Source of the DNA: a virus
Strand: one strand, 5' to 3'
DNA length: 21,203 nt
Virus record (IMG/VR): IMGVR_UViG_3300046777_000568
Coordinates: 1 to 21,203 of that record
Position numbers and translations under genes: made by a program. The notes under the pieces are model-generated. The model did not search any database and had not been told where the DNA came from. It was given only the letters and a program-made list of their open reading frames with translations. Shown piece after piece: positions 15,048 to 21,068 of this stretch. How positions within the stretch are numbered: position 1 is the first letter of the stretch; each line of letters opens with the position of its first letter.

Positions 15048-15081
15048 GGCAATCCTCATGGAGTTTGTACTATTTTCGCAC

Positions 15082-15106
15082 AAAAAGAGAGGGGTATCAA
15101 CCCCTC
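15082..15106 (-). terminator. Intrinsic terminator at the early/late boundary
   Basis: The minus-strand RNA forms GAGGGGT-TGAT-ACCCCTC, a perfect 7-bp GC-rich stem with a 4-nt loop, followed by TCTTTTT. It lies 24 nt after the stop of the HNH gene and ends about 35 nt before the next start. It is one of the two best terminators in the window, and all packaging and structural genes lie beyond it. Confidence 0.9.
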
Positions 15107-17410: not shown

Positions 17411-17566
17411 TTAGAAGTAGCAAGCAGTTTCACTAGCATCCATCTTGTCTTGATAGTGATTCCAGCCATCAATCCAATCTTTAGACTTTGACTTGTCGCA
17501 TGGCTCACAAGCTGCTGCTGCATCAAATCCATTACGAAATTCTTTGTTTGTAAAGTACTTGTTCAT
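17411..17566 (-). CDS. RMF-like 51-aa protein
   Basis: This is the first gene after the middle promoter, with AAGGA about 9 nt before the ATG. The protein MNKYFTNKEFRNGFDAAAAC continues EPCDKSKSKDWIDGWNHYQD and a short tail. The layout G-x-DAA ... CxxC ... W-x-x-GW resembles ribosome modulation factor (RMF), in which a G-x-x-A helix, a Cys/Pro turn and a W-x-GW helix occur in the same order and at the same length (55 aa in Escherichia coli). If the likeness is real it could act on host ribosomes. Similarity is by motif only; without a structure prediction it stays tentative. Confidence 0.6.
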   Translation of the reverse strand: MNKYFTNKEFRNGFDAAAACEPCDKSKSKDWIDGWNHYQDKMDASETACYF

Positions 17567-17614
17567 TTTGCTTAATCCTTAAAAGTACCCTCACGAATTG
17601 CTTGGGCTGTCTGA

Positions 17615-17643
17615 AGTATAGCAAACTAAACAGAATGTTTATT
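17615..17643 (-). promoter_or_regulatory. Middle-operon promoter (extended -10)
   Basis: On the minus strand an extended -10, TGC-TATACT (hexamer 17615-17620), lies within TTTGCTATACTT. The -35 is weak (AATAAA at about 17638-17643). Transcription would begin near 17608 and read the small genes from 17566 down to the terminator at 15082-15106. The core and much of the leader recur at the plus-strand promoter at 20854-20881. Confidence 0.7.
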
Positions 17644-17660
17644 CTAGGGACTTACCCTAA
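17644..17660 (-). other. Hairpin directly after ninB
   Basis: The minus-strand RNA forms TTAGGG-TAAGT-CCCTAG (five Watson-Crick pairs plus a wobble) starting on the base after the ninB stop codon. There is no U-run. The stem sequence is nearly the same as in the hairpin at 6741-6756, which also sits at a stop codon. Confidence 0.45.
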
Positions 17661-20294: not shown

Positions 20295-20633
20295 TCAAAT
20301 AAATTGATTGTTGGTAATCTCTTTAACTTTTGGTTTGCCAAACAATCTCTTAGCTTGAGCAGCCATCACAGCATACTCAGCTTTAGTAAAGATTCCATAA
20401 GTCTGGATACCACAAATAATGGTCTTATCCTCTTTAGGTTCTGGCTTTGTCAATGTGTACTTAGCCATCCAGTAGCGTCCTACCTTGACTTCCTCTGTGG
20501 TGAGTTCGCCTTTGTAGCGCAGTTTCTTAGCTGTGGACAGCACAGAGGACTTGGGCATACCTGTTAGGTCACAGAGTTCAGCAGAGGTCAGAGGGCCATT
20601 CTGGAGGGCTTTAATAATTGCTTCTTGTGTCAT
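20295..20633 (-). CDS. Winged-helix DNA-binding protein
   Basis: This 112-aa protein begins with a winged helix-turn-helix: IIKALQNGPLTSAELCDLTG then MPKSSVLSTAKKLRYKGEL, followed by a beta wing (TEEVKVGRYWMAKYTLTK) to about residue 60. The C-terminal part (KTIICGIQTYGIFTKAEYA, AKRLFGKPKVKEI) is unfamiliar. It follows cro and overlaps it by 4 nt, where lambdoid phages have cII. It is not a CII relative by motif, but a regulatory or replication-linked DNA-binding role is likely. There is an 81-nt gap to the next ORF limit, and about 105 nt to its preferred start. Confidence 0.75.
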   Translation of the reverse strand: MTQEAIIKALQNGPLTSAELCDLTGMPKSSVLSTAKKLRYKGELTTEEVKVGRYWMAKYTLTKPEPKEDKTIICGIQTYGIFTKAEYAVMAAQAKRLFGKPKVKEITNNQFI

Positions 20634-20782
20634 TTAAACCATTCTGGCTTGAGTTCTTTGAGTTGGTATAGGCGTAGAGGAGGGATTGTCTTCCAATGGT
20701 TGACTGCTGCCCTTGTAATGCCAAAGATTCTAGCAAGCTCACTCTGTGAGCCAGCAAGTGTGATAGCTTGTTGTATATCCAT
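20630..20782 (-). CDS. cro: Cro-like repressor, 50 aa
   Basis: The sequence MDIQQAITLAGSQSELARIF, then GITRAAVNHWKTIPPLRLYQ and LKELKPEWFK, is a minimal helix-turn-helix protein of the Cro type. The turn is SQSELARIFGITRAAVNHW (12-30), and IPPLRLYQ is characteristic of Cro-type repressors in proteobacterial phages. It should repress its own and the divergent early promoters by binding the palindrome at 20801-20815. The ATG at 20782 lies only about 7 nt after the -10 hexamer at 20789-20794, so the mRNA probably starts at the AUG and has no ribosome binding site. It is the first gene of the leftward operon; its stop overlaps the next start by 4 nt. Confidence 0.88.
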   Translation of the reverse strand: MDIQQAITLAGSQSELARIFGITRAAVNHWKTIPPLRLYQLKELKPEWFK

Positions 20783-20788
20783 CTCGAC

Positions 20789-20817
20789 AGTATAGCAAAA
20801 TCAACAAAGTGTTGAAA
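20789..20817 (-). promoter_or_regulatory. Leftward early promoter of cro
   Basis: On the minus strand an extended -10, TGC-TATACT (hexamer 20789-20794), lies in the same TTTGCTATACT core as two other promoters in the window. The -35 region (TTTCAA, 20812-20817) is 17 bp upstream. Transcription would start at or next to the cro ATG. Confidence 0.75.
20801..20815. promoter_or_regulatory. Operator-like perfect inverted repeat
   Basis: TCAACA-AAG-TGTTGA is a perfect 6-bp inverted repeat with a 3-bp centre. It fills the spacer between the -35 and -10 elements of the cro promoter, the expected place for autorepression. No second identical copy is seen in the divergent region, though GTTTA half-like repeats lie near 20856-20869. 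Confidence 0.7.
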
Positions 20818-20853
20818 GAAAGATACACTAGGGAAAGTACTTAGATAAATATC

Positions 20854-20881
20854 TTGTTTAGTCTGTTTACTTTGCTATACT
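20854..20881 (+). promoter_or_regulatory. Rightward divergent promoter
   Basis: TTGTTT (20854-20859), a 16-bp spacer and an extended -10, TGC-TATACT (hexamer 20876-20881). Transcription to the right would begin near 20888 and give a leader of about 40 nt before the gene at 20928. Two TGTTTA elements lie inside the promoter and could bind a regulator. Confidence 0.8.
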
Positions 20882-20927
20882 TACGTCAGCCCATAACAAA
20901 TCGTAAGTGGGTCTTTAAGGAAGCAAA

Positions 20928-21068
20928 ATGAAACTTTATAGAATCAATTTTTTCTGCGATTACAAGTCACACGCTGAAGAAGTTTGGGCTGTTGGGCGTT
21001 ATGAATTGGAAAAACAAATTTTGACTCAGTATCCCAAAGCTACTGGCATTGACATTTGGCTTATCTAA
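20928..21068 (+). CDS. Unknown 46-aa protein of the rightward operon
   Basis: AAGGA lies about 7 nt before the ATG. The protein MKLYRINFFCDYKSHAEEVW continues AVGRYELEKQILTQYPKATG and IDIWLI. It looks like a small alpha/beta protein with no signal or membrane segment. It is the first gene on the plus strand, and its leader matches that of the RMF-like gene at 17411-17566. The family is unknown. It is not a CI-type repressor, which might have been expected opposite cro. Confidence 0.7.
   Translation: MKLYRINFFCDYKSHAEEVWAVGRYELEKQILTQYPKATGIDIWLI

What the first reader, a model, noticed from the sequence alone, without database searches (positions are those of the whole stretch)
20871..20930. 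The promoter-leader cassettes of two separate operons are near copies
From -10 to ATG, the plus-strand sequence at 20871-20930 and the minus-strand sequence at 17625-17564 line up over about 60 nt: TTTGCTATACTT, then CAGCCCA, then a TCGT element, GGGT, CTTT, AAGGA and finally AGCAAAATG. The distances from -10 to ATG are 46 and 48 nt. Both leaders allow a short GCCC/GGGT stem. Genes behind them are unrelated. A duplicated regulatory cassette (repressor site, RNA element or antitermination site) would put both operons under common control.
Basis: seen in the sequence. Interest (0 to 1): 0.72.

Follow-up and report, generated by a model that had tools for sequence, protein, structure and literature searches.

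The report
Conserved RNA hairpin starting phage operons
A large group of uncultured, metagenome-derived phages starts two of its operons with near-identical messages whose first 22-25 letters fold into the same small RNA hairpin; this is a new, strongly conserved control or stabilising element whose exact job still has to be tested.

Summary
The two leaders (20871-20930 +, 17625-17564 -) are the only such pair in the record (blastn E 4e-10; no background window comes close). They are not a local accident: 345 IMG/VR stretches encode the gene family usually found behind the 17.6 kb copy; of the 80 fetched, 77 carry the leader. Of 20 records over 30 kb, 19 carry exactly two copies, on opposite strands. 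In 107 of 107 copies a -10 hexamer lies 6-7 nt before a conserved A, the inferred +1. Conservation starts at that base and holds (93-99% over +1..+33) where third codon positions and upstream DNA are only about 42% identical. Folding and pair changes on both sides (5 of 6 pairs) support a hairpin A-GCCC-AA-RC-NNNNN-GY-RA-GGGU, followed by U-rich, AAGGA, AUG. Upstream lie two dyads, enriched 165- and 370-fold and helically phased, so joint transcriptional control is likely. Best reading: an old duplication of a regulated promoter plus a 5'-terminal RNA hairpin that protects the mRNA 5' end and keeps the ribosome site open (0.5). Main rival: an RNA site read by a specific factor (0.33). Antitermination is weakened by a conserved terminator-promoter downstream of the second copy. 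No Rfam match.

The parts
20828..20844 (+). Dyad A of the left promoter, CTAGGGAAAGTACTTAG, centred -52
   Evidence: sequence; class CTAGGN7CCTAG is enriched 165-fold upstream of leaders and centred at -43/-53/-63
20876..20881 (+). -10 TATACT (extended, TGCTATACT) of the left promoter
   Evidence: sequence; a -10 hexamer lies 6-7 nt before +1 in 107/107 copies
20888..20912 (+). Left leader hairpin, inferred +1 at 20888: A-GCCCAU-A-AC-AAAUC-GU-AA-GUGGGU
   Evidence: RNAfold -7.1 kcal/mol; model R1 22.1 bits; covariation
20913..20930 (+). U-rich tract, Shine-Dalgarno AAGGA (20917-20921) and ATG (20928-20930)
   Evidence: sequence; conserved in A5
20928..21068 (+). First gene of the left operon, 46 aa; no Pfam match; in relatives this place is usually held by a 25-30 aa membrane peptide, which is second here (21079-)
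17644..17660 (-). Dyad A of the middle promoter, TTAGGGTAAGTCCCTAG, centred -44
   Evidence: sequence
17627..17641 (-). Dyad B of the middle promoter, TAAACATTCTGTTTA, centred -26
   Evidence: sequence; TNAACAN3TGTTNA is enriched 370-fold upstream of leaders
17615..17620 (-). -10 TATACT (extended, TGCTATACT) of the middle promoter
   Evidence: sequence
17587..17608 (-). Middle leader hairpin, inferred +1 at 17608: A-GCCC-AA-GC-AAUUC-GU-GA-GGGU
   Evidence: RNAfold -7.3 kcal/mol; R1 58.4 bits; covariation
17564..17586 (-). U-rich tract, AAGGA (17580-17576), spacer and ATG (17566-17564)
   Evidence: sequence
17411..17566 (-). First gene of the middle operon, 51 aa; an inserted small gene; the usual first gene of relatives (85 aa) follows at 17401-17144
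20801..20815 (.). Dyad B of the cro promoter, TCAACAAAGTGTTGA, centred -26 from the inferred cro start
   Evidence: sequence
20633..20782 (-). cro-like repressor gene; inferred leaderless mRNA (TATACT + 6 nt + ATG)
   Evidence: Pfam P22_Cro 7e-9 and YdaS 4e-9; PHROG transcriptional regulator; same layout in 30 listed relatives
15072..15106 (-). Terminator-promoter that probably ends the middle operon: GAGGGGTTGATACCCCTC TCTTTTTGTGCGAAAAT

Best explanation
The two sites are descendants of one ancestral unit: a regulated promoter (dyads A and B plus a -10) joined to a 5' leader whose transcript starts with a small hairpin. At the DNA level, the shared dyads let the same regulator(s) act on the leftward-early and the middle operon; Cro is the obvious candidate for dyad B, which also sits at -26 of the cro promoter. 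At the RNA level, the transcript starts one nucleotide before the hairpin. That leaves almost no single-stranded 5' end for RppH and RNase E, and it presents the U-rich tract, AAGGA and AUG as an unstructured ribosome-loading site. The hairpin therefore works mainly as a 5'-end stabiliser and translation-ready leader for short non-structural operons. Shown: two copies per genome, fixed distance to the -10, strong conservation from +1, hairpin by covariation, enrichment and phasing of the dyads. Inferred: the start site, Cro binding, mRNA stabilisation, the effect on translation.
For: A -10 hexamer lies 6 nt (88) or 7 nt (19) before the conserved A in 107/107 copies. The 5' unpaired length in the MFE is 1 nt in 85 of 86 distinct leaders, and the SD is mostly unpaired, mean P 0.71. 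Covariation: 99.6% of cells paired, 5 of 6 pairs with changes on both sides, 0 of 500 shuffles reach this, slid structures collapse to 16-40% paired. The leader is 93% identical where third positions are 42% identical. Exactly two opposite copies in 19 of 20 long records. Dyads enriched and phased. 5' secondary structure stabilises mRNA because RppH and RNase E need single-stranded 5' ends (PMC3997798). In an intercistronic position a different hairpin stands before the same ACUUUUAAGGA, as expected if a hairpin upstream of the SD is itself useful.
Against: A plain stabilising hairpin should be free to change sequence, yet AGCCC/GGGU and the inner A-RC...GY-RA are almost invariant, and the outermost pair stays a wobble (G.U, rarely A.C) instead of becoming G-C or A-U. 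The cro and late promoters do without the hairpin. Start sites, half-lives and the host are unknown. RppH inactivation in E. [quoted passage not shown]
Confidence: 0.5

Rival explanations
1. The hairpin is a specific binding site on the nascent mRNA for a phage or host factor (protein, small RNA or ribosomal protein) that switches translation or decay of both operons together.
For: Near-invariant primary sequence at lasting pairing, including the asymmetric internal loop; when the outer stem changes (AACCCGC...GCGGGC in L074, L075, L102; ACCCG...CGGG in L055) the inner A-AC-AAUUC-GU-AA is kept; the outermost pair keeps wobble geometry; two operons share it and the cro operon does not.
Against: No candidate binding protein was identified; the apical loop varies (AAUUC, AAAUC, AGUUC, AGAUC, AAAAC, GAAUU, ACUUU); relatedness of the sequences inflates apparent conservation; no Rfam family matches.
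Confidence: 0.33
2. The leader is an antitermination site (nut- or put-like) that modifies RNA polymerase at both promoters.
For: Position at the very start of two operons, as for put and nut sites (own knowledge); a strong terminator lies 0.85-4.1 kb downstream of the middle copy.
Against: That terminator is followed at once by its own promoter-like sequence, so late genes need no read-through; the left operon is only about 2 kb in L026 and no strong terminator was seen inside it; no boxA/boxB pair (own reading), and the hairpin is far smaller than put.
Confidence: 0.09
3. The conserved stretch +1..+22 is a DNA operator rather than an RNA structure.
For: It lies directly beside the promoter, and the core is roughly dyadic.
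Against: The internal loop carries A's on both arms (CCCAAGC...GCAAGGG), which breaks DNA dyad symmetry but is natural in an RNA internal loop; pair changes preserve RNA pairing; the promoter core can vary while the leader stays; conservation starts sharply at +1.
Confidence: 0.03
4. The two leaders persist mainly as recombination homology for exchanging small first genes, with no further RNA function.
For: Small genes differ behind otherwise identical leaders, and one family (MKLY.INFF) stands behind the left leader in the window and L106 and behind a middle-type leader in L012.
Against: Does not explain base-pair covariation or the difference between longer left hairpins (18 of 27) and 22-nt middle hairpins (31 of 31).
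Confidence: 0.04

Closest known systems
5'-terminal mRNA-stabilising stem-loops (ompA, papA leaders of E. coli; reviewed in PMC3997798)
   Same: Stem-loop at the extreme 5' end with few unpaired nucleotides, upstream of an open ribosome-binding site
   Different: Here the sequence is near-invariant, on phage operons, present exactly twice per genome and coupled to operator dyads; stabilisation is untested
Start Associated Sequences and extended SAS of Cluster K mycobacteriophages (PMC3203893)
   Same: Short conserved repeats at translation starts of non-structural phage genes, with an inverted repeat upstream; function not known
   Different: SAS occur at many genes (93 sites identified) with 17-bp inverted repeats in ESAS, different sequence; ours occurs twice per genome, begins at the inferred +1 of a promoter and has a two-part stem of 4-6 plus 2 pairs
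Phage T7 gene 10 leader (own knowledge)
   Same: 5' hairpin, then U-rich tract and strong Shine-Dalgarno
   Different: Unrelated sequence, single late gene, T7 RNA polymerase
Lambda nut sites and HK022 put sites (own knowledge)
   Same: RNA hairpins near the start of early phage transcripts
   Different: No boxA-boxB order, one 22-25 nt hairpin at the 5' end instead of about 65-nt put RNA, no evident need for read-through

Membership tests
5'-terminal stabilising stem-loop | Stem begins within a few nt of the transcript 5' end | tested here: met
   1 unpaired nt in 85/86 distinct leaders if +1 is the conserved A; -10 spacing supports that +1; start not mapped by experiment
5'-terminal stabilising stem-loop | Base pairing conserved | tested here: met
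   covariation counts and controls
5'-terminal stabilising stem-loop | Longer mRNA half-life with than without the stem | not testable with these tools
   needs RNA measurements
Known Rfam RNA family | Match at the family's gathering score | tested here: not met
   0 matches at gathering score; at E up to 10 only one irrelevant mir-245 hit on the other strand
Lambda-type nut site | boxA followed by boxB hairpin with a GNRA-like pentaloop | tested here: not met
   hairpin comes first and the pentaloop is AAUUC/AAAUC/GAAUU; the boxA order judged by eye
HK022 put site | Two stem-loops, about 65 nt | tested here: not met
   one hairpin of 22-25 nt, ribosome site directly behind
HK022 put site | cis antitermination without a phage protein | not testable with these tools
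   needs a read-through assay
SAS/ESAS of Cluster K | 13-bp GGGATAGGAGCCC next to the start codon, many copies | tested here: not met
   different sequence and two copies per genome (definition)
Cro-controlled promoters of a lambdoid-like switch | Shared operator at cro and at the co-regulated promoters | tested here: inconclusive
   TNAACAN3TGTTNA at -26 of cro and of many left and middle promoters; the window's left copy keeps only a half-site; binding not tested

The most novel reading that the evidence does not exclude
The hairpin is a new class of phage RNA control element, read by a dedicated phage or host factor through its asymmetric A-rich internal loop and a conserved terminal wobble pair, which couples expression of the recombination operon and the middle operon after transcription.
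Probability: 0.3. Interest if true: 0.75.

Novelty: new variant of a known kind. Interest (0 to 1): 0.6.

Why it matters
It shows a structured 5' leader under strong selection in a large group of uncultured phages, tied to a compact three-promoter switch (leaderless cro, two hairpin-led operons). A 33-nt element with a fixed +1, covarying stem and clean natural variants can be tested with simple reporter fusions. It would show whether phages use a standard 5' cap-like hairpin or a dedicated RNA switch to coordinate operons.

Tried and rejected
Rfam at gathering and permissive thresholds: nothing relevant. blastn of both leaders against 50,697 phage records: none, and the 85-aa protein has no tblastn match there. 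Pattern scan of 84,980 bacterial and archaeal genomes: three hits; the one read in full (L038) has no promoter or AAGGA around it, L039 and L040 were not read, so no prophage or host was found. Leader in the nearest cultured relatives by terminase (Methylophilales phage Venkman, 62%; Manatee Spring MW202481, 63%) or in MW202462: no convincing copy in the stretches fetched. Pseudoknot CTTACG/CGTAAG across the left copy, considered from the sequence and dropped: its 5' arm lies before the inferred +1 and is not kept in other copies. Attenuator (hairpin + U run): the U run shrinks to 3 in many copies. Riboswitch: too small, and the genes behind vary. Papers: no description of this leader found.

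Full report
OBSERVATION. The leaders at 20871-20930 (+) and 17625-17564 (-) read as described. They are the only such pair in the record: blastn E 3.7e-10, 77% identity; local alignment score 53 against at most 23 in 4199 background windows. The -10 core by itself is no more frequent than chance. The record is a virus contig of IMG/VR. It carries a P22_Cro/YdaS-like regulator, NinB, DUF1376 and a C5 methylase and, in the late half, terminase and other structural genes.

DISTRIBUTION. Exact-pattern scans of IMG/VR gave about 35 loci. A protein search with the 85-aa family that normally follows the middle copy gave 345 encoding stretches; 80 were fetched, independent of the leader sequence. 76 of 80 showed the leader by a strict pattern, L103 has it with a variant SD, and the other three contigs start within 138-246 nt of the gene, behind an inserted gene. 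A covariance model of the middle type finds 107 copies, 41 distinct, in 58 loci, including diverged forms. In 20 records over 30 kb, at E up to 0.1, 19 have exactly two copies on opposite strands and one has a single copy; G018's extra copy is at the redundant contig end. No copy was found in named phages or in a genome collection.

THE START. In 107 of 107 copies a -10 hexamer (TATACT 75, TACAAT 29) ends 6 or 7 nt before a conserved A. The nucleotides between them vary and conservation begins at that A. I therefore infer that A is +1: 17608 (-) and 20888 (+) here. Among phages with the 85-aa gene, the leader (+1..+33) is 93% identical when the protein is under 50% identical, third codon positions 42% identical and the upstream 53 nt 43% identical. 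The copies were picked by a pattern that fixes part of the leader, so these values are somewhat high; the 77 of 80 result is not affected by that.

THE HAIRPIN. RNAfold gives the same shape for each type: one free nucleotide, a 4-6 bp outer stem, an A-rich internal loop, a 2-bp inner stem and a 5-nt loop. Single-sequence folding energies are not exceptional (z about -0.5 to -1.6), so the case rests on comparison. In the model-fitted alignment 99.6% of cells pair, 5 of 6 pairs show changes on both sides (inner pair A-U 19, G-C 17, G-U 5 distinct rows; C-G to A-U in L119), 0 of 500 shuffles reach this and slid registers pair 16-40%. RNAalifold, run on the same fitted alignment, returned the same structure. 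Diverged left copies change the outer stem (AGCCCAC/GUGGGU to AACCCGC/GCGGGC) and keep the inner part. The outermost pair is G.U in 38 of 41 distinct rows; in L004, L074 and their relatives it reads A.C, a similar wobble, though this rests on few independent events. In the loci where orientation tells the two apart, middle copies are all of the 22-nt type (31 of 31) and left copies mostly longer (18 of 27), so the duplication is old.

CONTROL REGION. Upstream lie two palindromes. TNAACAN3TGTTNA is 370 times and CTAGGN7CCTAG (one mismatch) 165 times denser within 90 nt upstream of leaders than elsewhere. Dyad A centres fall at -42..-45, -52..-54 and -62/-63, and the distance from left +1 to the cro -10 falls at 78-80, 88-90, 99-100 and 120, i.e. 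in helical turns (Rayleigh R 0.87 and 0.95; the p value treats related sequences as independent). Dyad B sits at -26 of the cro promoter as well. cro appears leaderless: -10, 5-6 nt, ATG in 30 listed relatives and in the window. A DNA-bound regulator acting on all three promoters is the simplest reading; Cro is the candidate.

OPERONS. The left operon carries a small membrane peptide, an Erf-like recombinase, an SSB-like protein and MazG, about 2 kb, in L026 (the names Erf, SSB and MazG are my reading of the translations, not a profile search). The middle operon carries small accessory genes and probably ends 0.85-4.1 kb downstream at a conserved terminator whose loop holds the -35 of the next promoter (34 distinct sequences; window 15106-15072). 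So the hairpin marks two short non-structural operons, while cro and the late genes do without it. Small first genes are exchanged behind the leaders.

MECHANISM. Shown: conservation, fixed start, covariation, dyads. Inferred: with one free 5' nucleotide the hairpin should hinder RppH and RNase E, which need single-stranded 5' ends (PMC3997798), while the SD stays mostly unpaired. A second, unrelated hairpin before the same ACUUUUAAGGA in an intercistronic place fits a general use of hairpins there. The near-invariant sequence is the main argument for a factor-binding site instead; I hold that at 0.33.

NOVELTY. No Rfam family matches and no paper in the library searched describes it; the closest published analogue in kind is the SAS/ESAS repeats of Cluster K mycobacteriophages (PMC3203893), which differ in sequence, number and place. 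It is a new variant of a known kind: a structured 5' leader on phage operons.

LIMITS. No transcripts, no host, relatives are metagenome contigs, sequences are related, and the pair counts were made on an alignment fitted to the structure.

Noticed in passing
20782-20794 (minus strand); 30 relatives: The cro-like gene appears to be transcribed as a leaderless mRNA: TATACT, 5-6 nt, then ATG, in every relative listed.
   Followed up: partly
20782-20888; same intergenic region in 45 distinct relatives: The distance between the divergent cro and left promoters is quantised in helical turns (78-80, 88-90, 99-100, 120 nt).
   Followed up: partly
15106-15072 (minus strand); 34 distinct sequences: A terminator hairpin whose loop contains the -35 (TTGnnn) of the next promoter (TGnGATAAT), conserved between the middle operon and the late genes.
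   Followed up: partly
upstream of the terminator in the loci: A further hairpin ACTCA-GTTGCCAT-TGAGT or ACCAA-GTTGCCAT-TTGGT: the arms change together while the loop stays.
   Followed up: no
L004, L008, L066, L074, L097, L108, L117, L119 and others: A second hairpin AGGGGACTTAGTTCCCC or AGGGGGCATAGTCCCCC directly before ACTTTTAAGGA and the 85-aa gene in many phages that have a small gene inserted behind the middle leader.
   Followed up: partly
20928-21068; L012 behind 1378; L106 behind the left leader at 1460 (-): A small gene family (MKLY.INFF) stands behind the left leader in some phages and behind a middle-type leader in another, so genes are swapped between the two leaders.
   Followed up: partly
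4794-4761 (minus strand): A strong terminator-like hairpin (13 pairs) just after the major capsid gene region.
   Followed up: no
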